Under the pieces are notes generated by a model. That model had not been told where the DNA came from, ran no database searches, and worked only from the letters and a program-made list of their open reading frames with translations. Made by a program: the position numbers and the translations under genes. This document shows, piece after piece, positions 2,581-50,793 of a DNA stretch of 64,000 nt (position 1 is the first letter of the stretch; every line of letters begins with the position of its first letter). This DNA is from Verrucomicrobiia bacterium (GTDB lineage: Bacteria > Verrucomicrobiota > Verrucomicrobiia > Limisphaerales > Fontisphaeraceae), in contig JAOAIT010000070.1 in NCBI GenBank assembly GCA_026414565.1, positions 1-64,000 on the forward strand, given 5' to 3'.

Positions 2581-2586
2581 GGAAAG

Positions 2587-3186: not shown

Positions 3187-3294
3187 CGCGGAGAGGGGGG
3201 CAGGGCGGGGACGAGGGGGCCAGGGTGCGCTCCCCACCGAAAAATGCAAATAATTGCTTGGCAGGGGGGCGGTGAATCCGTTTGATTGCGCGGC

Positions 3295-4770: not shown

Positions 4771-4777
4771 GCCGCGC

Positions 4778-5785: not shown

Positions 5786-5847
5786 AATGGCGGAAAGCAG
5801 TTGCCACTGGCGGGGATGGATGTTTTATTAGGGGCAACCAATCTGCT

Positions 5848-32806: not shown

Positions 32807-35800
32807 ATGAAAACAAACCTGTTGCCCTTTTATTTAAGGCATCTTTTTGGGATTCTTTCACTCAGCCTCTTTCTTGCCCCGCATATTTGGGCTGCGTGTC
32901 TGGCACCGCCCGCCGGCAGCGTGGGGTGGTGGCCGGCGGAGGGGTGGCCGAACGATTTGCTGGGGCGGCATCCCAACGTGATGCAGGATGGCGCCACGTT
33001 TGCGACCGGCAAGGTGGGGCGCGCGTTTTATTTTGACGGAGCAAATGCCACCATTGAGCCTCTCACGCAGCCGCTGACCAATATCGCCAATACGTTTACC
33101 CTGGAATTTTGGGCTTACCCTACCCGGGGGCGTAATACTACTACGGAAAACACCAGCGGCCTGGCCGGGACAAGCGGCCAACGTTATGCCGTGGCTCCCG
33201 AGAGCGTCAATCTGGGCACGGTGGTGGGAGCTGGAGTGTCGGTGGGGACCAATGGCGTGAGTGTGTTTGAACATGGCACCAGTTACCTGCCTTCTTTGCT
33301 GGTGTTCGACACGAACATCACCGACTGGGTGCACATTGCGGTGGTTTATCAAAATAAACAACCCCGCCTCTATCTTAATGGCGTGTTGGTACGCACGGGA
33401 CTGACCAGCACACGCGCCACCGTTTTTCCCTCCAAATTGTTCGGGGGCGTGTCGAGCTATGGCTATTACGGCGGGTGGTTGGATGAGGTTACGATCTATG
33501 ACCGTGCCTTGTCGGACACCGAGATAGAGGCCATTTACCAGGCGGACGCTGCGGGGAAGTGTCGTCCTGATCCTGCCGTGCCGCCGGAAGGCATGCTCGC
33601 CTGGTGGACGGGTGATCGTCATCCTTACGATGTGGTGGGGACTAATCCTGGGGCACTCAGCAACGGCGTGACCTATGCGGTGGGAGTGAATGATTATGCA
33701 TTCAGCCTGGATGGCGTGAATGATTTTGTGGCGGTTGGGGCGCTGGGGTTGGGCCAGGTCTTTAGTTTGGAGGGATGGTTCAGACCCACCATCCTGACCA
33801 ATGACATGATGCTTATTTGCCGTGATGATTTTGGGGAAGCGCGCAGTTATTACTTGATGCTGGAGGCTTCCGGCGCCCTGGTGGGGTCGGTGGTTAACAG
33901 TAACAATTTGCCCACGCAATACCGGACTACCGCGGGAACGGTGAGCGCCGGCAACTGGCAGCACGTGGTGTGGACCTACAATGGCCAGGCCGGCTCAGGT
34001 CAGAAAATGAAGTTTTACGTCAATGGGGCTGCGGTCACCGGCACCGCTGCGGATGGCCAGGATCATGGCGGCACCCCGGCGGCCTTGATGGCGGGCGCGC
34101 GCCTGGGGGCCAACCTGGGTGGAGGCCAGGTATTTCGCGGCCAGATGGACGAGGTGGCGGTGTATGGCCGGGGATTGGGAATGGCCGAGGTGCAGGCGGT
34201 GTACCAGGCTGGATTTATGAACAAGTTCAAGCCCAACCCTTATGACGTGCCGTTCGGGGCAGAGTTATGGGTGCGCGGCAACGCCGCCAACGGAAATCAG
34301 AACCTCCAGCGAGCCGGCTTCAACAACGCCGGCACCGTGCGGTTACAATCCACCGACGGCGGTTATACCAGTGCCTTGACGGTGAATCTGGGTGCTTTGA
34401 CCAATTCGCCTTTGGGCGTGGTGAACATCGAGCAAGGTTCAGGGGGCAGCCGTTATTTGTATGGTGATTTGGTCAACCGCGGCACCTTCAACGTCAATTA
34501 CGGCATCACCTTCAGCAAGGCGGGGGGGGTGTATGAGAATCAAGGGACGTTCAATATTGCCAGCGGCCGGGAGTTAACGATCAGCGGCCAGAATCAGGTG
34601 TTTCGGCAGGTGGACGGCTTGCTCAACATTCAGGGGGCTTTGACGCTGAACAACGTCAGCATGAGTTATCTTGGGGGTGCGATCAGCGGCTCCCTCCATC
34701 TGATCAACAGCCGGCTATGGTTGGGGCCGGAGGCGACCAATGCCGCCAGTTTTATCATGACGGGTTCTTCCAGCACGTGGAGCGGGGACATTAAGGAGGG
34801 GCAAAGCATTTGGGTGCGGGGTAGCTCGGTGGGGAGCAGCACGACGATTACGGTGACCAATGGTTTTCGCAATGCGGGGACGCTGATGTTGCAGTCGGTG
34901 GATGGCGGTTATACGTCGGCCTTGGCGGTGGGGGAAGGAGTGTTGACCAACATGGCGGCGGGGGTCATCAACATTAATCCGGGCACTGGGGGGCCGCGGA
35001 CCGTTTCGGCCAGCCTGCTTAACTTGGGCACGGTCAACATCAATTACGGCACCACGTTCAGCAAGGCGGGTGGGGTGTATGAGAATCAGGGGACGTTCAA
35101 CATTGCCAGTGGCCAGGGGCTATCCCTGAGCGGCCAGAACCAGGTGTTCCGGCAGGCCGACGGGGAATTGAAGATCCTGGGGGGGCTCGACCTGGATAAT
35201 GTCACGTTCGATTATGTGTCGGGCAGGATTCAGGGGACTCCATTACTGGTGAACTCACGGTTGTTTCTGGGGGCTGGCGCGGTGAATGCCGCCAGTTTCA
35301 CCTTGACCGGCTCGGGCAGCACGTGGGTGGGGGACATCAAACCGGGCCAGTCCATTTGGGTGCAAGGCAGTGGCCGTGCCGGCAATACCACCGTGGTGGT
35401 GACCAATGGATTTGAAAACTCGGGGCTGCTTACACTGCAATCGGTCAATGGCGGGTACATCAGCAGCCTAACGGTCAACAACGGCACCCTTACCAACCGA
35501 CTGGGAGGGACAATCGCCGTTAACGGCGGGAATGGCGGGCCGCGGACCATCTCGGCCAACCTCTTGAATGAAGGGCTATTATCCGTCAATACCGGCCTCA
35601 CCTTGAGCAGGGCCAATGGCGTTTATGAGAATCTGGGCTATATATTCATCAATAATGGCGGCAGCATTTCCCTCAGCGGCCAAAACCAAATCTTCCGCCA
35701 GCGGGGCGGCAGTATCACCAATTTGGGCACATTGGATCTGACTGGGGTTCAGTTCCTTTTTGAGGGTGGGGGTCTTTACGGCAATGCCATCATCCTGGAG

Positions 35801-38800
35801 AATGTGCGGCTGGATATGGGGGCGGGTGCTGCCAGCCCGTGTGAGTTTCAAATGACGGGCAGCGGCAGCCGGTACTATGGGGATTTGAAGGCGGGACAAT
35901 TGTTGTGGGTGCAGGGCAGTTATCGAGGCGGCCACACCACCCTGATTGCGCCGGAGGGCTTCCGGAATGAAGGAACCATTCGCTTGCAATCTAGCGGGTC
36001 GAGTTTTGTATCCAGTTTGTCCGTGACCAACGGAGTGTTCACCAACGCAGCCGGTGGCGTGTTGGAGATCAACGGCGGCAGTGGCGGTTCACGCGATATT
36101 TACGGTCACCTGCTCAATGAGGGCGTGATCCAGGTGAACTATCACGGGGCATGGACACGCCCCGGGGCGGAGCTCATCAACCGGGGCACCATAAACATCG
36201 CCAACAACATCAACCTGACGTTGAATGGGGCAGGTCAGGTTTTTAACCAGGAAGGCATCATGACGGGAGGTGGGCGACTGGTCATGAGCGGGGGAAATCA
36301 AATCCTGAATCAGAACGGCGGCACCCTGGCGTTGGGCGGGGGTCTCGATTTGACGGGGGTGGCTTTCAATTTTGTGCGCAACGGGGCCACCGCCGCGAGT
36401 GGGCCGGTGGTGATGGAGAATTGCCGGCTGGTATTGGGGCCGGAAGCGGCCAGCCCGTGTGAGTTTCAAATGACGGGCAGCGGCAACCGGTACTATGGGG
36501 ATTTGAAGGCGGGACAATTGTTGTGGGTGCAGGGCAGTTATCGGGGTGGTCACACCACCGTGATTGCGCCGGAGGGGTTTCGAAATGAAGGGACCATTCG
36601 CTTGCAATCCACAGGGTCGAGTTTTGAATCCAGTTTATCCGTGACCAACGGCGTGCTGACCAATGCCGCCAGCGGCGTGGTGGAAATTGTTGGCGGGAGC
36701 GGCGGCGCGCGCGTCTTGTCCGCCAACCTGGTGAATGAGGGGTTGATGGCGGTTTACACGGGATTGACGCTCAGCAAGGCTAACGGCATTTATAACAACC
36801 GGGGGCGACTTTACATTGACAGCACGGGCAGCCTCACCCTCAACGGCCAAAACCAGGTTTTTCGCCAGCGCGGCGGTGGTTTCACAAATTCGGGGAGTGT
36901 AGATTTAACGGCGGTGACCTTTGTACTGGAGGAGGGGGGCATACCGGGCAACGCCCTTTATATGCAGGATTGCCGGTTGGAAATCGGGCCACAGGCCACC
37001 GGACCGGCGAATTTTATCCTGACCGGCTCCGGCAGCCGGTACTATGGGGATCTGAAAGCTGGTCAGGTGGTCTGGGTGCAGGGCAATTATCGAGGCGGCT
37101 ACACCACAGTGATTGCGCCGGAGGGCTTCCGGAATGAAGGGACCATTCGCCTGCAATCCTCGGGGTCAAGTTTTGAATCCAGTTTGTCCGTGACCAACGG
37201 GGTGTTCACTAATGCGGCCGGGGGCGTGGTGGAGATCAACCGTGGCACCGGCGGCGCGCGCAATATCGCTGCAAGCATTCTCAATGCCGGCCAGTTGTGG
37301 GTCAATTACTCCCTCAATTGCAGTAAAGCCGGGGCGGGTTTCCTCAACGAGGGGCGGATCATTATCGCCAGTGGCCAAACCTTGACGATCGCCAGCCCCA
37401 TGACGCAAGTGGGTGGCGCCCTTGAGCTTAATGGTGGAACGGTGGACCCCGGCGACAGCCTGCTGCTCCAGGGCGGGGTCCTCCTGGGCAATGGTACCGT
37501 GGCGGGCCAGGTGACCAACACTGCCGGCCGTGTGGCGCCCGGCACCAGCGCGGGGACGCTAACCATCAATGGCAATTACTCGCAGGGGCCGGGAGGAACT
37601 TTGGAAATTGAGTTGGGCGGCGCGAATGCGGGCAGTGAGTACGACCAATTAGTGGTCAACGGAACCGCCGAATTGAACGGGCGGTTGGTGGTGACTTTAA
37701 TCAATAATTTCGTGCCCACCAACGGCCAGTCTTTCACCGTGCTGACTGCGTCCTTGCGCAAAGGGGCCTTCACCGAGCTGCAATTGCCGACCCTGCCGGG
37801 AGGGCTGACCTGGGAAATCTTACACCAACCGGCTTCGGTCGTGGTGCGCGTGGCCGAGGCGTTGCCGGAGGGCGATGCCCGGATAACCGGCACGGTGCGC
37901 AATTCGGCGGGTTTGCCGCTCACCAATCTTTTGGTGACCGCCTATAGCGCCCAGACCAATTTTAATGGGCTGCGGGGAGATTACTATGACAACAAGGACT
38001 TCACGGCCTACAAGTTCAGCCGGCTCGATGCCACGGTGGATTTCAATTGGGGAGCTGGCGCACCGGACAGCCGCTTGGAGGTGGATACCTTTTCGGTGCG
38101 GTGGAGTGGCACGGTGACGCCACTGTACACCGAAACTTACACCTTCTACACGGTGACTGATGATGGGGTGCGCTTGTGGGTCAATGGACAGCAAATCATC
38201 AGCTATTGGGCTGACCAAGGGGCCACCGAACGTGCCAGCACGGGCATCGCCCTGACCAGCGGCGTGCCTTATGAAATTGTCATGGAGTATTACGACAATG
38301 CTGTGTACGCCACGGCCCGGCTCTTATGGAGCAGTCCCAGCCAGCCCAAGCAGGTGATTCCTGCTACTCAGTTGGCGCCCTCCAGCACCACCAACCTTGA
38401 GTACACCACTAGCAGTGCCTACGCCCGTGTGGTGGAAACCACCACCGACGCGCAGGGGCAGTTCAGTCTATTGGTATATCCCAGCATGTGGCAGGTGAAT
38501 GTGTTTGGGCTGCCCAGCCTCGGTTATGCCGAAACCACCAACCGCACGGTCGTCATTGCCTCCTCCCCTACCAACGCTGTCGTGGACTTTGTGGCGCAGC
38601 CGTTCACCGGTGAATATTACAATATCCTGGCCCAGGCCAATCCGCCGCAGGGCGGCAGTGTCAACGGTTCGGGCACCTATCCCGGCGGCGGCAGTGTGAC
38701 CTTGACCGCCCTCCCCAACACCAACGCCATGCCGTATTATTTTGTGAGCTGGACCGAGGGCGGTGTGGTCGCCAGCTCGAATGCCGTGTACACCTTCACC

Positions 38801-41800
38801 GTCGCGCGCGACCGCCAGTTGCTGGCGAATTTTGCTCTGCCACGTTACGCCGTGACGGTCAGCAATAACCCATCCGGGGCGGGCAGCGTGTCCGGTGCGG
38901 GCACTTACACCCACGGCACCACAGTGACCCTTAGCGCCACACCGTCCTACGGCTATCGCTTCAGTCACTGGAGTGAAGGTGGGACGGTGTTAAGCAGCAA
39001 CAGCCCATACAGTTTCACGGCCACACGACCCACGAGTGTTACCGCCAATTATGCCGAAGCGCATCTGGTGCACGTGGTTACCACCGCCACCAGCCCGGCG
39101 GGCCTGGCGAACGTGGCAGGGGCAGGGGTGTACACCAACGGCGAGACCACCACCATTAGCGCGCCGGTGACGGTCACCAATCCGCCCAACCTCTACACCT
39201 TCGTTCGTTTTCGTCTGAACGGGACGGTTTATGGGGCCCAGCCGGAGTTTCAAAAGACCTTCAACACCACGGACAACACCAACATGCACTTCGTAGCCGA
39301 GTACAGCTCCCGCCCACTGGCACCGCAGTTGGCGGCGGTTTGGGCCAATTTCAACAACCCCGTGCCGGCCACGACTGATTTGGCGCTGAGTGTTCGGTTT
39401 GATCGCTCAATGAACACGGGCGTTCAGCCGTTGCTGGTGTTCACCAACCTGAGCGGCATGGCCGCGCCGCAGGTACCCGCCAATGGCACATGGACCACCA
39501 CCTATGTGGCCAATGACACCTATCGCACGCCCGCCTTCACGGTGGACGCCTCCATGAACGGCACCAACCGTTTGAATGTCAGCCTGGCCCGCGCCACCGA
39601 CAATCAGGAGATGACGCCGGTGGATGCGTGGGACCTGGTGGTGGATGGCACATTCCCCACAATCACTAACATCAATGCCTACCCCGGGGCGGCGGGTGTC
39701 GTCATCACCTGGCAAACGGACGAGCCGGCCACCCGGCAGGTGGAATATGGGCTGACGGTGGCGTATGGCAACATGAGCACTCTGGGGGGCACCTTTGCCA
39801 CCGCCCACTCTGTGAGCATCGGCAATCTTGCGCCGGAAACAACTTATCATTATCGGGTGCGCTCGCGGGACCGTGCGGGCAATGAAACCATTTCCGAGGA
39901 CAAAATCTTCACCACCCTGGCGGCGCCGGATCTCATCGTCACCAACCTTACGCTCATCCCCACCAACGGCCTGGCCTCCAGCGGCGAGCTGACCATTTAT
40001 TGGGAAGATCTGAATGTGGGCGCGGGCCGCACGGAAACTTCATGGCAGGACTGGCTGGTGATCAGCAACCTCGACAGCGGCGAGCGGCTCTTAAATGTCA
40101 CGATTCCTTACAACGCGGGCGCGCAGGGCCATCTGACCAACGGCGCCTGGCGGGCGCGCCAGTATGTGTATCAGTTGCCGGATGGGCCGCGGGGAGCGGG
40201 TACGATTGGGGTGCGGGTGATGGTGGACACGTTCGGTGAAGTCGTGGAAGTCAACACCGCGGGGACGGCCGAGCAGAACAATTCGGCGCTGGCCACCAAT
40301 CTTTCTGCTCTTGCGCCCTATCCTGATCTGGCGGTGAGCAACCTCGTCATCGCCCCTCCTGTGCCGCAAAGCGGTGGCACGGTAACCGTGAGCTGGGCGG
40401 TGGCCAACGTGGGCGAGGCGGCGGTGGGGCGTGCCTTTCGCGATCGCTTGATCTTGCGGAATACGACGGCAGGTACGACGTATGTGGACACCACCCTGCT
40501 TTATGATGCTGCCGCCCAGGGCGCCATCCCGCCGGGCGCAATGCGCCTGCGGCAGCATAGCTTCCGCCTGCCTGATGGCGGGGCTGGAGTGGGCGAGCTG
40601 CGGGCGGAGGTGACGGTAGATTCACAAAACGCCGTGTTTGAGTACATGGGCGGATACGATGCCGAGACGAATAACGCCGCCGTCGCCACCGCCACCGCTG
40701 TCCTTGCGCCCTATCCAGATTTGGCGGTGGCCGCCATTGCCTCACCGGCCGCTGCGCCAATGGGCCAAACGCTGTTTATCACCATCACCCTCACAAACCA
40801 GGGGGATGGCCTGGCTGCGGCGCCGTGGAATAATGCGGTGGCGCTGGCCAGCGATCCTACCGGTGCGGGAGCGCAAGTGCTGGGGATGTTCACGGTGACC
40901 AATCCCCTGCCGCCCGGGGCGGCGCTGGTGGTCACCCAACAGGTGATTTTGCCGCCCGGCCTGCATGGCACGCGGTATTGGGTCATCACCGCAGACAGTG
41001 GCAATCAGGTCTTTGAGTTGGACAACGGCAACAACGTGCGGGTGGCCGAAACGCCGGTGCAGATTCAGGCCGCGGACCTGGTGGTGGAGGCGATTAATGT
41101 GCCCGCCAGCGCGGTGTATGGGCAACCGTTTGAAGTCACGTGGACCGTGCGCAACGCGGGCACCGCAGCCGCCAGCGGCTCGTGGCGGGATCGCCTTTAT
41201 TATGCCACTTCGCCCAGCCTGGCTTTTGCCCAACCGCTGCTGGATCGCACCACCGATGACATCAGCCCGTTGGCAGCCGGAGCGACTTACCTCCGTCAGG
41301 CCAGTGTGGTGATTCCCTTTGGAGCCACCTTGGAAAGCAGGACTTATTATCTCATTGTCGTGACAGATTTTAACAACCGCCAGCCCGAGAGCAACGATGG
41401 CAACAATTCGCGCATTCCCTCGGCGTTGACGGTGACGGCGCCGCCGTTGCCGGACCTGGCGGTGACCGGCGTGCAGGCGCCGCTGGTGGGCGTGCCGGGC
41501 CAGCCGGTGGAGTTGGTGTGGACGGTGACCAACGTGGGGAACGCCGCTGCAAACGGGCCGTGGGTGGAAACGGTCTATGTTTCCGGAGATGACCAGATTG
41601 GTGGCGATCTCTCGGTAGCCTCCTTCACCTTCACCAACTCCCTGGCGGCGGGAGAGTTTGTGACGCGCACGCAGGCGGTCACCCTCCCGGGCAATACGTT
41701 CATTGGCAACTTGTATTTCGTCGTCTCGGCGGACAGCTCCCTGCTGGTGCGCGAAGTGACGGAGGGCAACAACACCGCCGTGGCCCCCACCAACACTTAC

Positions 41801-44800
41801 GTGCCGGCGCGCCTGGGCCTCACCGCTCCCGTCACGCGCATTGCGGAAAACAGTCCCAACCCTGCGCTGCGTCTGACGGTCAGCCGCAATGGGCCGTTGA
41901 CCAATGCGCTGACGGTGACGTTGTCCAACAGTCATCCGTCGCGGCTGGTCTCGCCACCGCAGGTGGTCATTGCTGCAGGCCAGGCTGCGGCCAGTTTTGA
42001 GGTGTTGGTCATTCCGGACGGGGTGGCCGGGCCGGATGTGGAGGTGCATCTTATGGCCTCAGCCCCGGATTACCTCAGCGAGGACTTGCTCCTACGCATA
42101 TTGAATAGTGATCGCCGACCGCTTTACCTGCAACCCGCCACCACCACCGTCACCGAGGGGCAGAGCATCACGTTCACTGTGCGCCGCGAGGCTCTGGACG
42201 GCCTGCCCTTGCAGGTGAATCTGGAAAGCTCGGCGCCCGCTCAACTGGTGGCGCCCGCCCAGGTGGTTATTCCCTCCAATAGCTTGTCGGTGACCTTTGG
42301 CGTGCTCGCCACCGACGATCAGGACTTGGAGCCGGTCACCAGTTACACCCTTACGGCTGCTGCCGCTGGCTTCTCCAACGCCGTGGCGCAGGTGGTGGTG
42401 CAGGACAATGACATCCCCACTTTGCAGGTGGCGTTTGCGGCGCCGTCGGTGGGCGAGGGCATAATTCACGCCACGACGCTGACGATCACCCGCACCCCGG
42501 TGACGGCGTTCCGCTTGAACGTGGAACTGCAGGCCAGCCTGCCCGGCCAACTGATTATCCCGGCCACGGTGACCTTGCCGGCCAATGTGGCCACTTTGAC
42601 CCTTCCCGTCTCCACGGTGGACAATGCGTTTGCCGACGGCACGCGGCAGGTGGCGGTTACAGCGCATGTTCTGGATGCGGCCGGCAACCGTCTGGCCACC
42701 GGCGGGTCTGACACGTTGGAGATCAACGATGATGATGGCAATGCTCTGCAGCTCACCCTGGCGCGCAGTCTGGTGGCGGAGGGTTTAAGTCCGGCCACCA
42801 CGGGCACCGTAACCCGCAACACCGCCACCAACGAACCCTTGGATATCACGCTCACCTCCAGCCGCAATACGGAAGCCACCGTACCGGGCACGGTGACCAT
42901 CCCGGCAGGCCAGCGCTCGGTCACCTTCCCGATCAATACACTGGAGGACGGGGTGAGCGACGGCAATCAGACGGTTTTGATTACGGCTGCGGCCTCTGGT
43001 TTTGCCCTGGGGCGGGCGGCCCTGGTGGTTTCCGATGTGAATCTCCCCGATCTGGTGGTGCCGCAGTTGATCGCCCCCACCAACGGCTTGACCGAGACGA
43101 CGGTGCCGGTCTCCTTCCGCGTGCTAAATCAGGGCGTGGCTGTGGCCAGCGGCTCGTTTGTGCAGCGGGTGTGGCTCTCGCGGGATCCTCTGCCCGGCAG
43201 TGATGATCTGTTGATGGGAGAGTTTCCTTTCACCGGCCAGTTGCCGGTGGGGATGCACATTGAGCAGGTGCTGACCATTACGTTGCCGCGCACCCCGGGC
43301 GACTATTACGTGCTGGTGACAGCCGATGCCGGCGGGCAGATCAACGAAACGTTGGAGAACAACAACACGGCGATTTCCACCACACCCATCCGCGTCGCGC
43401 CGGCCTTCACGGCCACGGTACAAACGGATGTGGAGACCGCCCTGGCTGATACGGCGGTGCCGCTCTATGGCACGGCCACGAAGGCTGCCGGCGGACCGGC
43501 GCCATTTGAGGCTGTGAGCATTCACATTTATTTGCGCGAGACGCGACGCACTCTGGCCGCGTTAACGGATGCCAACGGCCAGTTCACTGCGGTTTTCCAG
43601 CCGCTGCCGGGAGAGGGGGGCGTGTACCGGGTGGGCGCGGCGCATCCCGCGGCCACGGACATCCCCATACAGGATCAATTCACTTTGCTGGGCCTGCGGC
43701 TTAACCCCGACTATGTGCATCGCAAGGTGCTGGGGCTGGAGACAATCACCGGCACTGTGCGTTTGGAGAACCTGGCGGATGTGGATTTGCACAACCTCAC
43801 CGCCCAGTTGCAGGACGTGCCGGCCGGGCTAAGTGTGCAGGTAATGTTGACCAATGCCCTGCCGGGGCTGGCCACCGCCACACTGACCTATACCATTCAA
43901 TCGTTGGAGGATGCCGAATCGTACAACACCTTTGCGGTGCGCCTTCTTTCGCAGGAGGGGGCCAATCTCACCCTGCCCATGTATATCCAGGTGGAGCCGC
44001 GGCGGCCTCGTTTGCAGGTACAACCGGCTGTCCTCATGGGAGGCATGGTGCGCGGGGAGCAACGCGTGGTGGGCCTTGAAGTGGCCAATGTTGGCGGCGC
44101 GCCCACCGGGCCGCTCAGCATTATGATTCCCGAAGTGCCTTGGCTGCGGGTGGTTTCCACCAATCCGCTGCCCAACCTTGAGCCGGGCCAGACCAGCCGG
44201 GTGGAGTTGTTGTTAATGCCGGCGGCGGACCTGCCGCTGGCGGAGTATCAGGGCAGCATTGTTCTGGCCGCCACGCTGGCCAACAACACCATTCCCTTCA
44301 ACTTCCGTTGCCTCTCGGATGCCGTGGGCGACTTGCGCATTCTGACGGTGGACGAGTTGAGCTACCACGGCGACAACCCGCGCAATCTGGCCGGGGCCAA
44401 AGTGGTGTTGCGTGATCCTTTCACCGGTGCCGTGGTGGCCAGCGGGGTGACGGATACCAATGGCATATTTGACGTATTTAATCTGCGCGAAGGCACTTAC
44501 CATCTGGAAGCCACCGCGGACCGGCACGACCGCACGCTGGCCACCCTGGAAGTGAAGGCCGGCCAGCGGAATGAGCAGACCATCTTCCTGCGTCTGCAGT
44601 TGGTGCGGTACAACTGGACGGTGGAGGAGATTGAGATTGAAGATCGCACCCGCATTACCCTGGAAACAGTTTATGAAGCGTTCGTGCCCACGCCGGTGGT
44701 GACCGTGGAGCCGAGCGTAATTGATTTGGCTGGGGTTACCGGCGAGATGGCGCAGATTGATCTGAAAATCAGCAACCACGGCCTGATTGCCGCGCGGGAT

Positions 44801-47800
44801 GTCGTCATCAAGTTCCCCGAGCACGAACGCTGGATTATTACGCCGCTCATCAGCGGGGCGGCCAGCATTCCCGCCAACAGCTCGATGACGGTGCCGGTCA
44901 TTATTCAGCGGCGGCCGCCGGAAACCAATGGTCTAGTGGCAGCCAATCCGCGGGATTTGACGATTCGCATCGGCGACTGCACCTACACGGCCACCATTGA
45001 ATGGCGGTTGATCTGCGGCCCCTTCAACATTGCCTATCCGGTTCCCATCCCGGTGATCAATGCCACGGGTAACTGCTTCGGCGGAAGTCGCGTAGGCGGT
45101 CCGGCCAGCGGAGGCAGTGGCACAGGGTGGTGGAGAGGCGGCTTGGGGAGTTGGGGTGATCCCGGTGTGGCGACAGCACCGGGCCAGCCCCAGCTCACCA
45201 TTTACACACCTACCCCCAGTGTGACTCCCAGCAACAAGTGCGCGTGTGTGAAAAGTGAGTACCAGGAGGAGTGCCTGAAATATGAGGCCGGCTTGAAAGC
45301 CGAAATTGCCGGCGCTCTCACCAAGGCCATCAATGCGGCGCTGGCCAGCACGCCCTTAAGCGTCAAAAGCATCGAGGTCAGCTTCAACGTCAACGGCCAG
45401 CTTTGTACCTGCTGCGAAGATGACTTAAAGGGCCTGAAGGCCTCGGTGGGTGGAAGTGCCAGCGTCACCGCCACGCTGGTTATTGGTTATAATCCGGAAG
45501 CCAGCGGGCAGGTGAACATCCCCGGCTTGGGCGCGGCCAGCTACGAGGCCTCGTTCCTGGCGGGCGCCGAGATCACCCTCTCCGGAAGTGTCAGCGGTTC
45601 ATACGGCACGGAATGTCACATGCGCAATCCCAAGCTCTGTCTCGGCGGCAGCGTGAGCGCATCCGGCGTGGCGGGGCTGCGCGGCAAGGTGGATTTGACG
45701 CATGAGCGCAACGGCCGGACTTATAAAGGCGGCGGCACCGCGTTCGCGGGCGTGACCGTGGGCGCAACCGTTTCCATACAAGGTTGCACGCCCGGCGGGG
45801 GCATCGAGGTCAAGGTGTGTCTCGATCCGGTGGTCTTCAAGGTCAACGTGGAAGGCAGCATTGAAGTGGACGGACTGTCCTATTCCACCTCCACCGGTTA
45901 TGAGCGCCAGTTGCTGCCGGGCGGCTGCTATCCGCCGGAAGGGGACGGGGTGGTGCGCCTGCATCTGCCGGATTTTGGCCTCGCAGCTCAGCCCACCGCC
46001 GGAGAGATGGCGCAAGTGCTCGGGTTCCGTCACGCCGAAGGCATGGTGCAGGATTTGACCGGCCGCCGCGCCGCCATTGCTGCGGAGGCCCCGGCGAGCC
46101 ATCTGGCGGCGGCGCTGCAATCTGCGCGCTCTCCGACCGGCACGGCTGCGCTGTTCACAGCGCCCTTCCGCCGCTCGCAGGTGACGGTGGGCTGGGCCGC
46201 CCCGCGGCCGGCGGCGCCTCCGGTGGGCAGCCTGGCGCGCGCCGCCCTGCCACCGGCTCCGCTCCAAAATGGTGTCTGTGCCCAGGTGCGGCTGCAGATT
46301 GACCAGGAGGCTGTCATGACGCGCAAAGCCATTGGCGCAACGCTGGATATCTTCAATGACTCCAACGTGGACCCGTTGCAAAACCTGAATGTCACCCTCA
46401 GCATTCTGGACCCCAACGGCAACCTGGCCAACCACAAGTTTGTCATCCTGCCGCCCGAGCTGACCGACATCGAGCCGGTCAGCGGCTCCGCCGACACCAA
46501 TGAATTTACGGTCACGCGGGATTTGTGGCGGATGCCGCCGGCCTCCACGGGCCGGGCGCGGTGGATCATTCTGCCGCGGGACGAAGCCGCGCCGGAGACG
46601 CCGGTGGTCTATTCGGTGGGCGGCATCATGACCTACAGCGCCGGCGGTGTCCCCGGCTCCGCCATCCTGCTGCCGTCGCCGGTGACGGTGTATCCCAATC
46701 CGAAACTCATCCTGAAGTACTTCCACCAGCGCGATGTGATGAGTGATGACCCCTTCACGCCCGAAGTGGAGCCGGCCGAGCCGTTCACGCTGGCGGTCAT
46801 GGTGCAGAACGTGGGTAAGGGTATCGCCAAAAAATTTAGCATCACCTCCGCCCAGCCGAAGATCATCGAGAACGAAAAAGGCCTGCAGATTGACTTCAGC
46901 ATCATCGCCACAGAAGTGGCCGGCAAATCATTGTCGCCTTCGCTTACCGCCGTTTTCGGGGATATTGGCCCCAATCAAATCGTCATCGGCCGCTGGTTGA
47001 TGAAGGCGTCCTTGCTGGGCTTTTTTGTGGATTATCGCGCCACTTTTGAACATGAAAACACGTTGGGCGGCCGCGAAACCTCGCTGATTGATAGCGTGGA
47101 AATCCACGAGATGATTCGCCAGGTGCAGGCGGCCGGGCCGTTGGAGGATGGCCGCCCTGATTTCTTGGTCAATGATGTCAAGGATGATCTGACGCTGCCA
47201 GATGTCATTTACCTCAGCGATGGCTCCACCGGGATGGTGGCGGCCGTCACCTCGGGGGTTGTGGACCAGGCGCCGGGCCCCGGCCGTCTGGTGGTCACGT
47301 TGACCGCGCCAATGCCCGGTGGCTGGGCCTATTTGCGGGTGCCGGACCCGGCCGATGGCCAATATGTCCTGACTCGCGTCGAGCGAAGCGACGGGGGCCT
47401 CGTTCCGCTTAACACCAATGTCTGGGTTTCGCGTTACACCTTCACCAAACCGGGTGTGCGCCCGACGCGGGAAAATGTGTTGCACCTGCTCGATTACAAT
47501 TCTCCCGGGGTTTATTACCTGCATTATACGCCGCCGCCCCGGCCCGATACCAATCCGCCGACCAGCCGGGTGGCTGCGTTGCCGCCGGCCAGCTTCCCGC
47601 AAATCCCCGTAAGCTGGTCAGGGACAGACGCCGAGAGTGAGATTCATTATTATGATGTGTTTGTTTCCCTCAACGACGGCCCCTTTGTGCCGTGGCTGCA
47701 AAGGACCCGGCAAAGCGGGGCGGTGTATCAGGGGGCGGCCGGCCAGCGTTATGCCTTCTATTGCGTGGCCACGGATACCGCCGGCAACACGGAGCCAGTG

Positions 47801-49615
47801 CCATTGACGCCCCAGGCGGTGACCACCGTCTCCCTGATTAACACACCGCCGCAACTGGCTGCGCTGCCCAATGTCACGCTTAAGGAGGGCGAGACACTGC
47901 AGGTTGCCGTCATCGCGACCGACGCGGATATGCCCGCGCAGCAGCTCGTGTACAGCCTCGGCAGCGGCACGCCGCCAGGAGTGAGCATTCACCCGCAAAG
48001 CGGCGCGCTGACCTGGCTGACGGGCGAGTCGCACGGTGGCACCACCAACCGCATCGCCGTGGTGGTAACCGACAATGGTGTGCCGGCCATGTCTGCCACC
48101 CAATCCTTTGTGGTGGTGGTGCGCGAGGTCAACCAGCCACCGGTGGTGCCGGCACTGATTGACCGCCGCGTGGATGCCGGACAGATCATCGGCTTCCTGG
48201 TGGGCGCTTCAGATCCGGATATCCCAGCCAATACTTTAACCTACAGCCTGGAAAATGCCCCGGCCGGGGCGACCCTCCACCCCACCACGGGCCTGTTCCA
48301 ATGGACACCGTCGCTGGCGCAATCACCCAGCACCAATGTCATCACGGTGCGCGTCACGGACAACGGCACTCCGAATCTTTCCGCAGCCAGCACCTTCATG
48401 GTCATCGTCAACCGGCCCAATCAGCCGCCCAACCTGGCAGTGCCCGCAGACCAGGTGATTGATGAAGGAAACTTGCTGCTTGTCAGCGCCTCGGCCAGCG
48501 ATGCCGATGTGCCGGCGCAACAGCTTGCCTACAGTCTCGTGAACCCGCCGGCAGGGGCCACCATCCACCCGGTGAGTGGCATTATCTCCTGGACGCCTGC
48601 CGAGGCCCAGGGGCCTTCCACCAACACGCTCACCGTGAAAGTCACGGATAATGGCTCGCCCCCGCAGAGCGCCACGCGCAGCTTCACGGTGATCGTCAAT
48701 GAGGTCAATTCGGCGCCTGTCTGGCCGTCTCTGCCGCTGCTGACGGCGGCGCCGCGACGGCCGTTGACCAATCAAGTGGCCGCCACCGATGCTGATCTGC
48801 CCCCCAATCAGATTACATACCGGCTCGCGGCAGGAAGTCCGGTAAGCGCCTCGATCAACGCCAGCAATGGCATGCTGGTTTTCCTGCCGGGGGCCGAGCA
48901 TGCGGGCCGCACCAACTGGCTGCCGATTGTGGCAACTGACAGTGGTCAGCCACCCCTGAGCGCTACCACCTTGGTGGCGGTGGCCGTCTCGGACATGATG
49001 GATCTGGCGGCGGGGCAGGGCATCGTTCCCGCCGGCCAGAGCGGCCGCATACCGTTGAATCTATTTGTCAGCAGCCCACTAACGAATCTGGGCTTTACGC
49101 TGCAAGTGCCCTCGGCGGGTTTGACCAACTTCATGGTGACGTCTTCCAATGCCGCCCTGACGGCCAGCCCTGCCGTGCGTATATCGGACATGGAATGGCG
49201 GTTCACTTTGGAAATCCGTGATGCCAGCCTGGTGGGCACGCAGGAATTCGCGGCATTGCAATTTGACGTTTTGCCCCAGGCATCCGCGGCCATCATACCG
49301 CTGAATCTTCAGCAGGTGTCGGCGCAAACCATCGCCGGGCAGCCCGTGCCTTATGTGTGGACCTACCCGGGAAGGGCGATTGTGGTGGGAGCACAACCCT
49401 TGCTGAACCTCAGCACGGAAGCGGGTCAGGTCCGTCTGCTGCTCTATGAATTGCCGGGCACGACTCTGCAATTGCAGACGGCCACGCGCCTGGAGCCGCC
49501 GCCACCCTGGCAGAACTGGATGCGGATTACGGTAACCAATTACCAGACAGAGGTATTGGATTTGATGAGCCATCCCGCCATGTACTATCGGGCCTTCCGC
49601 ACCAATGCACCGTGA
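32807..49615 (+). CDS. Giant (5602-residue) secreted multidomain surface protein
   Basis: One uninterrupted frame of 16.8 kb with a signal peptide ending near LAPHIWA. Approximate modules in order: two LamG-like domains (40-245, 255-474); six beta-rich repeats of about 182 residues (487-1520); an autotransporter-like tail (GTLTINGNYSQGPGG); a PA14 domain (1721-1854); bacterial repeat domains (1937-2165); a fibronectin-III-like domain (2281-2371); five CARDB-like domains (2374-2997); four Calx-beta-like domains (3002-3411); a sixth CARDB-like domain (3413-3533); Ig-like and carboxypeptidase-regulatory-like segments; a Gly-rich linker; a private Cys-rich module (4145-4374); four putative-Ig (He_PIG-like) repeats (5013-5394); a cohesin-like domain (5398-5521); and the shared C-terminal module. 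No enzyme is visible; adhesion or matrix building is inferred. Confidence 0.88.
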   Translation: MKTNLLPFYLRHLFGILSLSLFLAPHIWAACLAPPAGSVGWWPAEGWPNDLLGRHPNVMQDGATFATGKVGRAFYFDGANATIEPLTQPLTNIANTFTLEFWAYPTRGRNTTTENTSGLAGTSGQRYAVAPESVNLGTVVGAGVSVGTNGVSVFEHGTSYLPSLLVFDTNITDWVHIAVVYQNKQPRLYLNGVLVRTGLTSTRATVFPSKLFGGVSSYGYYGGWLDEVTIYDRALSDTEIEAIYQADAAGKCRPDPAVPPEGMLAWWTGDRHPYDVVGTNPGALSNGVTYAVGVNDYAFSLDGVNDFVAVGALGLGQVFSLEGWFRPTILTNDMMLICRDDFGEARSYYLMLEASGALVGSVVNSNNLPTQYRTTAGTVSAGNWQHVVWTYNGQAGSGQKMKFYVNGAAVTGTAADGQDHGGTPAALMAGARLGANLGGGQVFRGQMDEVAVYGRGLGMAEVQAVYQAGFMNKFKPNPYDVPFGAELWVRGNAANGNQNLQRAGFNNAGTVRLQSTDGGYTSALTVNLGALTNSPLGVVNIEQGSGGSRYLYGDLVNRGTFNVNYGITFSKAGGVYENQGTFNIASGRELTISGQNQVFRQVDGLLNIQGALTLNNVSMSYLGGAISGSLHLINSRLWLGPEATNAASFIMTGSSSTWSGDIKEGQSIWVRGSSVGSSTTITVTNGFRNAGTLMLQSVDGGYTSALAVGEGVLTNMAAGVININPGTGGPRTVSASLLNLGTVNINYGTTFSKAGGVYENQGTFNIASGQGLSLSGQNQVFRQADGELKILGGLDLDNVTFDYVSGRIQGTPLLVNSRLFLGAGAVNAASFTLTGSGSTWVGDIKPGQSIWVQGSGRAGNTTVVVTNGFENSGLLTLQSVNGGYISSLTVNNGTLTNRLGGTIAVNGGNGGPRTISANLLNEGLLSVNTGLTLSRANGVYENLGYIFINNGGSISLSGQNQIFRQRGGSITNLGTLDLTGVQFLFEGGGLYGNAIILENVRLDMGAGAASPCEFQMTGSGSRYYGDLKAGQLLWVQGSYRGGHTTLIAPEGFRNEGTIRLQSSGSSFVSSLSVTNGVFTNAAGGVLEINGGSGGSRDIYGHLLNEGVIQVNYHGAWTRPGAELINRGTINIANNINLTLNGAGQVFNQEGIMTGGGRLVMSGGNQILNQNGGTLALGGGLDLTGVAFNFVRNGATAASGPVVMENCRLVLGPEAASPCEFQMTGSGNRYYGDLKAGQLLWVQGSYRGGHTTVIAPEGFRNEGTIRLQSTGSSFESSLSVTNGVLTNAASGVVEIVGGSGGARVLSANLVNEGLMAVYTGLTLSKANGIYNNRGRLYIDSTGSLTLNGQNQVFRQRGGGFTNSGSVDLTAVTFVLEEGGIPGNALYMQDCRLEIGPQATGPANFILTGSGSRYYGDLKAGQVVWVQGNYRGGYTTVIAPEGFRNEGTIRLQSSGSSFESSLSVTNGVFTNAAGGVVEINRGTGGARNIAASILNAGQLWVNYSLNCSKAGAGFLNEGRIIIASGQTLTIASPMTQVGGALELNGGTVDPGDSLLLQGGVLLGNGTVAGQVTNTAGRVAPGTSAGTLTINGNYSQGPGGTLEIELGGANAGSEYDQLVVNGTAELNGRLVVTLINNFVPTNGQSFTVLTASLRKGAFTELQLPTLPGGLTWEILHQPASVVVRVAEALPEGDARITGTVRNSAGLPLTNLLVTAYSAQTNFNGLRGDYYDNKDFTAYKFSRLDATVDFNWGAGAPDSRLEVDTFSVRWSGTVTPLYTETYTFYTVTDDGVRLWVNGQQIISYWADQGATERASTGIALTSGVPYEIVMEYYDNAVYATARLLWSSPSQPKQVIPATQLAPSSTTNLEYTTSSAYARVVETTTDAQGQFSLLVYPSMWQVNVFGLPSLGYAETTNRTVVIASSPTNAVVDFVAQPFTGEYYNILAQANPPQGGSVNGSGTYPGGGSVTLTALPNTNAMPYYFVSWTEGGVVASSNAVYTFTVARDRQLLANFALPRYAVTVSNNPSGAGSVSGAGTYTHGTTVTLSATPSYGYRFSHWSEGGTVLSSNSPYSFTATRPTSVTANYAEAHLVHVVTTATSPAGLANVAGAGVYTNGETTTISAPVTVTNPPNLYTFVRFRLNGTVYGAQPEFQKTFNTTDNTNMHFVAEYSSRPLAPQLAAVWANFNNPVPATTDLALSVRFDRSMNTGVQPLLVFTNLSGMAAPQVPANGTWTTTYVANDTYRTPAFTVDASMNGTNRLNVSLARATDNQEMTPVDAWDLVVDGTFPTITNINAYPGAAGVVITWQTDEPATRQVEYGLTVAYGNMSTLGGTFATAHSVSIGNLAPETTYHYRVRSRDRAGNETISEDKIFTTLAAPDLIVTNLTLIPTNGLASSGELTIYWEDLNVGAGRTETSWQDWLVISNLDSGERLLNVTIPYNAGAQGHLTNGAWRARQYVYQLPDGPRGAGTIGVRVMVDTFGEVVEVNTAGTAEQNNSALATNLSALAPYPDLAVSNLVIAPPVPQSGGTVTVSWAVANVGEAAVGRAFRDRLILRNTTAGTTYVDTTLLYDAAAQGAIPPGAMRLRQHSFRLPDGGAGVGELRAEVTVDSQNAVFEYMGGYDAETNNAAVATATAVLAPYPDLAVAAIASPAAAPMGQTLFITITLTNQGDGLAAAPWNNAVALASDPTGAGAQVLGMFTVTNPLPPGAALVVTQQVILPPGLHGTRYWVITADSGNQVFELDNGNNVRVAETPVQIQAADLVVEAINVPASAVYGQPFEVTWTVRNAGTAAASGSWRDRLYYATSPSLAFAQPLLDRTTDDISPLAAGATYLRQASVVIPFGATLESRTYYLIVVTDFNNRQPESNDGNNSRIPSALTVTAPPLPDLAVTGVQAPLVGVPGQPVELVWTVTNVGNAAANGPWVETVYVSGDDQIGGDLSVASFTFTNSLAAGEFVTRTQAVTLPGNTFIGNLYFVVSADSSLLVREVTEGNNTAVAPTNTYVPARLGLTAPVTRIAENSPNPALRLTVSRNGPLTNALTVTLSNSHPSRLVSPPQVVIAAGQAAASFEVLVIPDGVAGPDVEVHLMASAPDYLSEDLLLRILNSDRRPLYLQPATTTVTEGQSITFTVRREALDGLPLQVNLESSAPAQLVAPAQVVIPSNSLSVTFGVLATDDQDLEPVTSYTLTAAAAGFSNAVAQVVVQDNDIPTLQVAFAAPSVGEGIIHATTLTITRTPVTAFRLNVELQASLPGQLIIPATVTLPANVATLTLPVSTVDNAFADGTRQVAVTAHVLDAAGNRLATGGSDTLEINDDDGNALQLTLARSLVAEGLSPATTGTVTRNTATNEPLDITLTSSRNTEATVPGTVTIPAGQRSVTFPINTLEDGVSDGNQTVLITAAASGFALGRAALVVSDVNLPDLVVPQLIAPTNGLTETTVPVSFRVLNQGVAVASGSFVQRVWLSRDPLPGSDDLLMGEFPFTGQLPVGMHIEQVLTITLPRTPGDYYVLVTADAGGQINETLENNNTAISTTPIRVAPAFTATVQTDVETALADTAVPLYGTATKAAGGPAPFEAVSIHIYLRETRRTLAALTDANGQFTAVFQPLPGEGGVYRVGAAHPAATDIPIQDQFTLLGLRLNPDYVHRKVLGLETITGTVRLENLADVDLHNLTAQLQDVPAGLSVQVMLTNALPGLATATLTYTIQSLEDAESYNTFAVRLLSQEGANLTLPMYIQVEPRRPRLQVQPAVLMGGMVRGEQRVVGLEVANVGGAPTGPLSIMIPEVPWLRVVSTNPLPNLEPGQTSRVELLLMPAADLPLAEYQGSIVLAATLANNTIPFNFRCLSDAVGDLRILTVDELSYHGDNPRNLAGAKVVLRDPFTGAVVASGVTDTNGIFDVFNLREGTYHLEATADRHDRTLATLEVKAGQRNEQTIFLRLQLVRYNWTVEEIEIEDRTRITLETVYEAFVPTPVVTVEPSVIDLAGVTGEMAQIDLKISNHGLIAARDVVIKFPEHERWIITPLISGAASIPANSSMTVPVIIQRRPPETNGLVAANPRDLTIRIGDCTYTATIEWRLICGPFNIAYPVPIPVINATGNCFGGSRVGGPASGGSGTGWWRGGLGSWGDPGVATAPGQPQLTIYTPTPSVTPSNKCACVKSEYQEECLKYEAGLKAEIAGALTKAINAALASTPLSVKSIEVSFNVNGQLCTCCEDDLKGLKASVGGSASVTATLVIGYNPEASGQVNIPGLGAASYEASFLAGAEITLSGSVSGSYGTECHMRNPKLCLGGSVSASGVAGLRGKVDLTHERNGRTYKGGGTAFAGVTVGATVSIQGCTPGGGIEVKVCLDPVVFKVNVEGSIEVDGLSYSTSTGYERQLLPGGCYPPEGDGVVRLHLPDFGLAAQPTAGEMAQVLGFRHAEGMVQDLTGRRAAIAAEAPASHLAAALQSARSPTGTAALFTAPFRRSQVTVGWAAPRPAAPPVGSLARAALPPAPLQNGVCAQVRLQIDQEAVMTRKAIGATLDIFNDSNVDPLQNLNVTLSILDPNGNLANHKFVILPPELTDIEPVSGSADTNEFTVTRDLWRMPPASTGRARWIILPRDEAAPETPVVYSVGGIMTYSAGGVPGSAILLPSPVTVYPNPKLILKYFHQRDVMSDDPFTPEVEPAEPFTLAVMVQNVGKGIAKKFSITSAQPKIIENEKGLQIDFSIIATEVAGKSLSPSLTAVFGDIGPNQIVIGRWLMKASLLGFFVDYRATFEHENTLGGRETSLIDSVEIHEMIRQVQAAGPLEDGRPDFLVNDVKDDLTLPDVIYLSDGSTGMVAAVTSGVVDQAPGPGRLVVTLTAPMPGGWAYLRVPDPADGQYVLTRVERSDGGLVPLNTNVWVSRYTFTKPGVRPTRENVLHLLDYNSPGVYYLHYTPPPRPDTNPPTSRVAALPPASFPQIPVSWSGTDAESEIHYYDVFVSLNDGPFVPWLQRTRQSGAVYQGAAGQRYAFYCVATDTAGNTEPVPLTPQAVTTVSLINTPPQLAALPNVTLKEGETLQVAVIATDADMPAQQLVYSLGSGTPPGVSIHPQSGALTWLTGESHGGTTNRIAVVVTDNGVPAMSATQSFVVVVREVNQPPVVPALIDRRVDAGQIIGFLVGASDPDIPANTLTYSLENAPAGATLHPTTGLFQWTPSLAQSPSTNVITVRVTDNGTPNLSAASTFMVIVNRPNQPPNLAVPADQVIDEGNLLLVSASASDADVPAQQLAYSLVNPPAGATIHPVSGIISWTPAEAQGPSTNTLTVKVTDNGSPPQSATRSFTVIVNEVNSAPVWPSLPLLTAAPRRPLTNQVAATDADLPPNQITYRLAAGSPVSASINASNGMLVFLPGAEHAGRTNWLPIVATDSGQPPLSATTLVAVAVSDMMDLAAGQGIVPAGQSGRIPLNLFVSSPLTNLGFTLQVPSAGLTNFMVTSSNAALTASPAVRISDMEWRFTLEIRDASLVGTQEFAALQFDVLPQASAAIIPLNLQQVSAQTIAGQPVPYVWTYPGRAIVVGAQPLLNLSTEAGQVRLLLYELPGTTLQLQTATRLEPPPPWQNWMRITVTNYQTEVLDLMSHPAMYYRAFRTNAP
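34265..37400 (+). repeat. Six-unit tandem repeat array (five full units of ~545-620 bp plus a partial)
   Basis: Units begin at codons 487, 668, 850, 1033, 1239 and 1422 with (L/I/V)WV(R/Q)G. Each runs through NGF-x-N-x-G, a Leu-Gln-Ser, a LTN, SANL-x-NEG, SGQNQVFRQ-like and TGSGS-x-x-x-GD-x-K-x-GQ landmarks. Units are 181-183 residues, except the fourth (206), which carries a partial internal duplication. Near-identical DNA occurs at the unit 3/4 and 4/5 junctions: 35831-35925 and 36449-36543 differ at one base in 95. A third, more diverged copy starts near 37031. This suggests recent duplication or gene conversion within the array. The strand-turn pattern suggests a beta-solenoid. Confidence 0.85.
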
Positions 49616-49754: not shown

Positions 49755-50765
49755 TTGAGTACGCAACCAGCATCAGCGGCGTGGGGTGCGGCCACCCGCA
49801 CCACCACGAGTGACACACCGCGCGCCCGCCCCGGCGCGCACACGGAAACCGTCCGACAGCTCATTGCGAGCGTAAGCCAGGCTTTTCTGGGCAAGGAAGA
49901 GGTGGTGGCGCGCGCCGTCCTCACCCTCATTGCTGGCGGTCACGTGCTGATTGAGGACGTGCCCGGGGTGGGCAAGACGCTGCTGGCCAAGGCCCTGGCC
50001 CGCTCGCTGGCCGCGGAGTTCAAACGCATTCAATTCACGGCGGACCTGCTGCCTTCGGACATTACTGGCGTCACTGTCTATGCACCCGAACGACATGAGT
50101 TCTCCTTCCGGCGCGGGCCGGTCTTCACCAACATCTTGCTGGGCGACGAAATCAATCGTGCCACGCCCCGCACGCAGTCCAGTCTGCTGGAAGCCATGGA
50201 GGAGGGACATGTGACGGTGGATGGCGTGCTGTACCCCTTACAGACGCCGTTTTTTGTTATTGCCACGCAAAATCCCATCGAGCTGGAAGGCACCTATCCG
50301 CTGCCCTTCGCGCAGATGGATCGCTTCATGGCGCGCCTGAGCATCGGCTACCTGCAGCGCGCCGAGGAAGTGCGCATGTTGCGCGCACAGCAAACCTTTG
50401 ATCCGCTGGAGCGCGTCACGCCGGTGTTGGATTGCTATGGCCTGACCGTCATTCAAGCCGCGGTGCGTGAAGTGCGTGTGGAGGAGGCACTGGCGGGTTA
50501 TGTGGTGGACATTGTCAACGCCACCCGGCAGCACGAGGCTTTGGAGCATGGCGCCAGCCCGCGCGGCAGTTTGGACATGCAGGCCTACAGCCAGGCCCTG
50601 GCCCTGCTGGCCGGGCGGAATTATGTGCTGCCGGACGATGTGAAAGAGGCCGCGCGCGTGGTTTTGCCCCATCGTTTGATTGTGCGCAAGGGCACGCGCT
50701 CGGTGCCCTTGAGCGCACCGGCCGTGGTGGAGCGCATCCTCGAATCGGTGCCGGTGCCGGTGTGA
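49755..50765 (+). CDS. MoxR-family AAA+ ATPase
   Basis: A 336-residue AAA+ protein. Walker A is DVPGVGKTLLAKA (68-80), Walker B is NILLGDEINRA, and FRRGPVFTN, TQSSLLEAMEEG and ATQNPIELEGTYPLPFAQMDRF are MoxR signatures (sensor 1 and the arginine region). MoxR ATPases act as chaperone-like partners of von Willebrand-type proteins. Here the next two genes are DUF58 and a transglutaminase-like membrane protein, the standard trio. The start is TTG 49755; there is no in-frame ATG before the conserved domain. It begins 139 bases after the giant gene, beyond a terminator-like hairpin. Confidence 0.93.
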   Translation: MSTQPASAAWGAATRTTTSDTPRARPGAHTETVRQLIASVSQAFLGKEEVVARAVLTLIAGGHVLIEDVPGVGKTLLAKALARSLAAEFKRIQFTADLLPSDITGVTVYAPERHEFSFRRGPVFTNILLGDEINRATPRTQSSLLEAMEEGHVTVDGVLYPLQTPFFVIATQNPIELEGTYPLPFAQMDRFMARLSIGYLQRAEEVRMLRAQQTFDPLERVTPVLDCYGLTVIQAAVREVRVEEALAGYVVDIVNATRQHEALEHGASPRGSLDMQAYSQALALLAGRNYVLPDDVKEAARVVLPHRLIVRKGTRSVPLSAPAVVERILESVPVPV

Positions 50766-50793
50766 GGCAGGGCAAGGCATAACTCCCCAAGGT

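What the first reader, a model, noticed from the sequence alone, without database searches (positions are those of the whole stretch)
32807..49615. Intact 5602-codon gene for a giant modular surface protein
It takes up a quarter of the window with no frame break, so it is under selection. The order LamG, solenoid repeats, PA14, CARDB, Calx-beta, private module, He_PIG repeats, cohesin-like is not an arrangement I know. The presence of PA14, LamG and cohesin-like folds hints at a carbohydrate-binding or matrix-forming scaffold.
Basis: partly seen in the sequence, partly recalled or inferred. Interest (0 to 1): 0.75.

Follow-up and report, generated by a model that had tools for sequence, protein, structure and literature searches.

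The report
Giant surface protein with swappable middle
The gene is real and intact: it encodes a 5,602-residue exported protein of a Verrucomicrobiota bacterium whose family keeps one long central scaffold constant, swaps the modules at its front end and in one internal slot, and ends in a short tail with about 70 matches in the same genome, which may be an undescribed address label for the cell surface.

Summary
The 5,602-codon gene is real. A sister species (single-contig genome) has it as one 5,787-aa ORF with the same neighbours, and whole-gene dN/dS is 0.13, so it is not an assembly join. Missed: InlB-B repeats, PA14 lying inside a CarboxypepD_reg-like domain, an unnamed ~430-aa hub, and a ~75-aa C-terminal domain.

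The full order occurs only in the sister, but aa ~2,400-5,200 form a colinear core found in 3-6 kaa ORFs across the order. The most conserved part is the hub (aa 4486-4915), not the "private module". That module sits in an exchangeable slot: two unrelated domain types alternate there, with at least 5-6 switches on the hub tree and unchanged flanks. Relatives have RHS repeats or Hint domains at this position. The C-terminal domain has 71 matches in this genome, next to the stop codon in all 29 loci checked, mostly behind signal peptides, with no Pfam or NCBIfam model.

Best reading: a Sec-exported, surface-displayed scaffold with a swappable adhesive head, a swappable internal module and a candidate sorting tail. 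Surface location and function are inferred.

The parts
32807..49615 (+). whole gene, 5,602 aa plus stop
   Evidence: single-ORF orthologue in sister G068
32807..32893 (+). Sec-type signal peptide (aa 1-29)
   Evidence: sequence; heuristic
32897..34216 (+). two LamG/ConA-like lectin domains (aa 31-470)
   Evidence: Pfam PF13385, E 1.6e-32, 2 stretches
34244..37876 (+). beta-solenoid-type repeats ending in an autotransporter-like repeat (aa 480-1690)
   Evidence: sequence; shared by G168 and G170 proteins and the sister
37877..38611 (+). CarboxypepD_reg-like domain with a PA14 domain inside it (PA14 at 37964-38365)
   Evidence: PF07691 E 7e-19, PF13620 E 5e-5 (below its curated cut-off)
38612..39922 (+). 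InlB-B (Flg_new_2) repeats, Big_5-like and fn3 (aa 1936-2372)
   Evidence: PF18998 E 3.8e-22, PF00041 E 1.6e-4; Big_5-like assignment by eye
39923..41806 (+). CARDB domains 1-5 (aa 2373-3000); start of the conserved core
   Evidence: PF07705 E 8.8e-51, 5 stretches; core map
41807..43042 (+). four Calx-beta-like repeats (aa 3001-3412)
   Evidence: profile-profile 96% probability each; no Pfam match at E<=1
43043..44614 (+). CARDB 6, unnamed conserved beta region and second CarboxypepD_reg (aa 3413-3936)
44615..45061 (+). 'pre' domain before the slot (aa 3937-4085)
   Evidence: 37-53% identity in the family; pilus-chaperone/ASH/MSP-type fold matches, Z about 9-10
   Evidence: no Pfam match
46262..47551 (+). 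hub (aa 4486-4915), the most conserved part, unnamed
   Evidence: 51-58% identity over aa 4613-5038 outside the genus; dN/dS 0.049-0.061; no Pfam match at E<=10
47552..47836 (+). fibronectin type III domain (aa 4916-5010)
47837..48991 (+). four He_PIG/cadherin-type Ig repeats (aa 5011-5395)
   Evidence: PF05345, PF00028, PF18957
48992..49387 (+). cohesin-fold domain (aa 5396-5527)
   Evidence: AlphaFold pLDDT 92; PDB cohesins, target TM up to 0.82
49388..49612 (+). C-terminal 'FYR' domain (aa 5528-5602), candidate sorting or anchoring domain

Best explanation
The gene encodes a Sec-exported, surface-displayed giant scaffold of an order-wide family in Limisphaerales-type Verrucomicrobiota. From N to C it has a swappable adhesive head (here LamG-LamG-solenoid-PA14-InlB repeats), a conserved stalk of CARDB and Calx-beta-like beta-sandwiches, a pre/slot/hub unit holding one exchangeable Cys-rich module, a short Ig-type stalk with a cohesin fold, and a ~75-aa C-terminal FYR domain. 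Proposed mechanism: Sec takes it to the periplasm, the FYR domain hands it to an outer-membrane export or attachment route shared with other FYR-tailed proteins, the stalk holds the head away from the cell to bind polymers, cells or matrix, and the hub presents the exchanged module. Shown here: gene integrity, selection, modularity, colinear core, module exchange, terminal position of the FYR domain and its association with signal peptides. Inferred: surface location, ligand binding, the export route, disulphides in the slot and the purpose of the slot module.
For: Single ORF and shared neighbours in the sister, dN/dS 0.126. Colinear core aa ~2400-5200 in 3-6 kaa ORFs, while front ends differ. 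Hub in 73 of 196 genomes of the order and 35 of 388 sampled from the phylum; 452 related stretches in genome contigs, the 80 kept nearly all labelled Verrucomicrobiota. Slot exchange: 6 changes on the hub tree, 5 forced by starred branches; four class I/II pairs with 50-64% identical flanks and no detectable similarity in the slot. FYR domain: 71 matches in the genome, in 29 of 29 loci 0-6 residues from the stop, 22 of 23 complete carriers with a signal-peptide-like start against 23 of 54 control ORFs, attached to unrelated domains, no Pfam or NCBIfam model. Cohesin fold.
Against: No experimental localisation or binding data. The signal-peptide test is a heuristic that also fires on 43% of control ORFs. 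The carriers examined are the stronger matches. The FYR domain could be a plain folded C-cap with no sorting role. No export partner was identified. The cohesin fold evolves fastest within the genus (dN/dS 0.45) and no dockerin partner was sought.
Confidence: 0.6

Rival explanations
1. The pre/slot/hub unit is a delivery device related to polymorphic toxin systems: the giant is a contact stalk and the slot holds an effector-type module released by processing.
For: At the same position relatives carry RHS repeats (Methylomonas, 15 repeats in the same ORF; Eleftheria, a separate RHS gene) or Hint domains including PT-HINT (7 of 7 split Verrucomicrobiota giant tails). The slot module is exchanged while its flanks stay. 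In Eleftheria an ankyrin gene lies beside the RHS gene and T2SS genes follow the hub gene.
Against: In the fused proteins, P0001 included, the exchanged module is internal, not C-terminal. Neither slot class matches a Pfam family. No immunity-like gene was recognised directly beside P0001. RHS and Hint domains also occur in non-toxin proteins. The T2SS link rests on one locus.
Confidence: 0.25
2. An ordinary giant adhesin or matrix scaffold: domain shuffling of beta-sandwich modules, with the slot module just another binding domain and the FYR domain a passive C-cap.
For: Most modules are common extracellular ones. Giant surface proteins are frequent in the PVC superphylum (PMC11573180, PMC5177795). 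Head modules differ between relatives.
Against: Does not explain a hub more conserved than all the binding modules, the fixed slot position, or why the FYR domain ends many unrelated exported proteins.
Confidence: 0.3
3. A cellulosome-like scaffold in which the cohesin fold recruits dockerin-bearing enzymes.
For: Clear cohesin fold; LamG and PA14 in the head.
Against: Only one cohesin-like domain; it is the fastest-evolving part (dN/dS 0.45) and by BLAST at E<=0.01 it was found in only some of the relatives. Dockerins were not searched for.
Confidence: 0.08
4. Artefact: separate genes joined by the assembly, or a decaying pseudogene.
For: None found; the window is part of a draft assembly of 71 contigs.
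Against: Same single ORF and neighbours in the single-contig sister genome; purifying selection in every domain.
Confidence: 0.01

Closest known systems
Giant modular surface proteins of the PVC superphylum and other bacteria ('giant genes', 'huge proteins'; PMC5177795, PMC11573180, PMC12863079)
   Same: Very long proteins, many of them surface proteins; several per genome
   Different: Here a colinear ~2,800-aa core with an unnamed hub, an exchangeable slot at a fixed position and a shared terminal domain could be demonstrated
Polymorphic toxin systems with RHS repeats and HINT processing (PMC3482391)
   Same: Exchange of one module at a fixed place in a large exported protein; RHS or Hint domains at the equivalent position in relatives
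   Different: Exchanged module is internal in the fused proteins; no known toxin domain and no adjacent immunity gene recognised
Bacteroidota type IX secretion C-terminal domains (Por_Secre_tail type) and PEP-CTERM
   Same: A short conserved domain at the very end of many otherwise unrelated exported proteins
   Different: No match to any sorting-domain model in Pfam or NCBIfam; sequence pattern G..Y.L...L..W....FYR differs; no hydrophobic tail seen, unlike PEP-CTERM
Cellulosomal cohesins
   Same: Fold of aa 5396-5527
   Different: Single, fast-evolving copy; no dockerin partner established

Membership tests
Cohesin fold | cohesin beta-sandwich fold | tested here: met
   model pLDDT 92; leading PDB matches are cohesins, target TM 0.60-0.82 in most rows
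Cellulosome scaffoldin | several cohesins and dockerin-bearing partner enzymes | not tested
   one cohesin-like domain seen; no dockerin search was run
Type IX secretion cargo | C-terminal domain matching the known T9SS CTD models | tested here: not met
   41 members of A2: no such model in Pfam or NCBIfam at E<=0.1
Type IX secretion cargo | SprA translocon in the genome | tested here: inconclusive
   PF14349 gave no match, but neither did any control genome
Polymorphic toxin | exchangeable toxin domain at the C-terminus | tested here: not met
   in P0001 and the fused relatives the exchanged module is internal, about 1,100 aa from the C-terminus in P0001
Polymorphic toxin | recognisable toxin domain | tested here: inconclusive
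   no Pfam match for slot classes I and II; undescribed domains are not excluded
Polymorphic toxin | RHS repeats or HINT processing at the delivery end | tested here: inconclusive
   present in split or proteobacterial relatives, not in P0001
Classical autotransporter (type Va) | C-terminal 12-strand barrel | tested here: not met
   C-terminal 212 aa are predicted as a cohesin fold plus a small beta domain; no autotransporter model
RTX/LapA-type type I secreted adhesin | C-terminal RTX repeats, no Sec signal peptide | tested here: not met
   no RTX match; Sec-type signal peptide present

The most novel reading that the evidence does not exclude
Verrucomicrobiota possess an undescribed surface-export route that recognises the ~75-aa FYR domain, and use it to display giant stalks whose pre/slot/hub unit presents interchangeable effector-like modules related by position to RHS and Hint cassettes.
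Probability: 0.2. Interest if true: 0.85.

Novelty: new variant of a known kind. Interest (0 to 1): 0.58.

Why it matters
To my knowledge, secretion and surface sorting in Verrucomicrobiota are poorly described. A terminal domain shared by dozens of unrelated exported proteins gives a directly testable sorting-signal hypothesis, and an unnamed, strongly conserved hub beside an exchangeable slot gives a defined target for structure and function work in a large group of environmental bacteria.

Tried and rejected
Metalloprotease reading of the hub 'HEMIH' motif: rejected, the second His is not conserved and P0001 has HEMIR. Search of genome contigs with the private module alone found nothing, because it is the variable part; the hub alignment found 452 relatives. 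SprA search was uninformative, since no control rang. Fold search with the 1,074-aa model gave matches for the pre and FN3 domains only; slot and hub were barely tested, so absence of a known fold is not claimed. Plasmid search showed the hub also in Nostoc, Methylomonas and Eleftheria, but the T2SS link rests on Eleftheria alone. Literature searches found no description of the FYR domain in the held library, which lacks most subscription journals. The downstream MoxR/DUF58/TgpA genes keep their place in the sister by position and size only, and I did not see such a run beside the other relatives, whose neighbours were not annotated; they were not taken as part of the system.

Full report
Observation. 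The ORF at 32807-49615 is intact, with a coding-like composition along its length and a negligible chance of arising at random. A sister species in the same genus, whose genome is a single contig, carries it as one ORF of 5,787 aa with matching neighbours on both sides. Over 5,597 aligned codons identity is 79% and dN/dS 0.126; the hub is most constrained (0.05-0.06), the slot 0.09 and the cohesin-like domain least (0.45).

Modules. Pfam supports LamG x2, PA14, CARDB, CarboxypepD_reg and He_PIG/cadherin repeats and adds InlB-B repeats and fn3. PA14 lies inside the first CarboxypepD_reg-like stretch. Calx-beta is not reached by Pfam but is supported by profile-profile comparison with clear Calx-beta repeats of the same genome. 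The cohesin-like domain is confirmed as a fold.

Family. A search with the private module found giant ORFs in 13 of 196 genomes of the order. Comparing those proteins with P0001 showed a colinear core from about aa 2,400 to 5,200, while the front ends differ: some have LamG and solenoid, some LamG only, some neither. Column identity across the core shows that the private module is the least conserved part and that aa ~4,620-5,020 are the most conserved. A search with that hub found it in 73 of 196 genomes of the order, often in several copies, in 35 of 388 sampled from the phylum, and in 452 stretches of genome contigs. The hub has no Pfam match at E<=10 and no PDB sequence match except its C-terminal FN3.

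Slot. Between the pre domain and the hub lies a Gly-rich linker and a Cys-rich module. Of 70 sequences, counting P0001, 25 carry class I (all-beta, CTCC motif; P0001), 40 class II (Cys-rich, RWNRT...DFI) and 5 something else or both motifs; the classes were called by motif. On a tree of the hub the class changes at least 6 times, 5 of them forced by starred branches, against 21 in shuffles. In four class I/II pairs, three of them sisters or joined in one small clade and one (L153/L144) from the same clade of six, the upstream part is 50-57% and the downstream part 56-64% identical while the slot shows no similarity; same-class control pairs remain similar. The tree is a quick one, and the rows are mostly metagenome assemblies, so chimaeras in single cases are possible. 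In split loci the giant ends with the pre domain, linker and a Hint domain and the hub is the next gene; a gene of about 270-290 aa follows it in four genomes, identified as a secreted rhodanese-type protein in the own genome. In Methylomonas RHS repeats follow the pre domain in the same ORF; in Eleftheria an RHS gene and an ankyrin gene lie between the two parts and T2SS genes follow.

C-terminal domain. Most complete relatives end in a W....[FY][FY]R-type tail. A profile of 41 such ends has 71 matches in the window's genome; in the 29 loci checked the match ends 0-6 residues before the stop codon. Of 23 complete carriers, 22 have a signal-peptide-like start by a home-made test that also accepts 23 of 54 control ORFs. 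Carriers have unrelated front parts: LamG, Ig, lamin-tail, beta-propeller, passenger repeats. 89 of 289 sampled genomes of the phylum have it at E<=1e-5. No Pfam or NCBIfam model covers it. This is what a sorting domain looks like, but a passive cap is not excluded.

Mechanism. Best supported: export by Sec, display at the surface by way of the FYR domain, an adhesive head on a beta-sandwich stalk, and a pre/slot/hub unit that presents one of several modules. The toxin-like reading rests on position and on RHS and Hint relatives; in P0001 itself the exchanged module is internal and unidentified, so membership in a polymorphic toxin family is not claimed.

Novelty. Giant modular surface proteins are known, also in this superphylum (PMC5177795, PMC11573180). 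The conserved hub, the exchange slot and the FYR domain were not found described in the libraries searched.

Noticed in passing
window 5731-12309 and 24259-27372; G000:C70:70552-70734: Three further ORFs on the same contig (2,192, 1,037 and ~1,360 aa) also end in the FYR domain and have signal-peptide-like starts.
   Followed up: partly
L092 (G000:C12:44001-62000): Own-genome split relative: giant with C-terminal Hint domain, 1,336-aa hub protein, secreted rhodanese-type protein, 548-aa protein with two tandem FYR domains; the same gene order by size in G068, G083 and G118.
   Followed up: partly
L177 (Eleftheria terrae plasmid): Hub protein in a cluster with an Ig-like giant, an RHS protein, an ankyrin protein, type II secretion genes and a cohesin-containing protein.
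   Followed up: no
L176 (Nostoc conjugative plasmid), L227 (Methylomonas mobilizable plasmid): The core occurs on plasmids outside Verrucomicrobiota; the Nostoc copy has a class II slot and a 50%-identical hub.
   Followed up: partly
G000:C44:106851-107141: An open frame of 10,043 aa in the same genome matches only the FN3 part of the hub profile.
   Followed up: no
L103, L105, L121, L130: Records titled Akkermansia muciniphila carry core proteins that group with the other Verrucomicrobiota rows here, so the record titles may be wrong.
   Followed up: no
window 49755-53873: MoxR-type ATPase, DUF58 and TgpA-type transglutaminase genes directly downstream; ORFs of similar size and position follow the gene in the sister species.
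   Followed up: partly
window 48992-49387: The cohesin-fold domain has about nine times the dN/dS of the hub between the two sister species (0.45 against 0.05).
   Followed up: no
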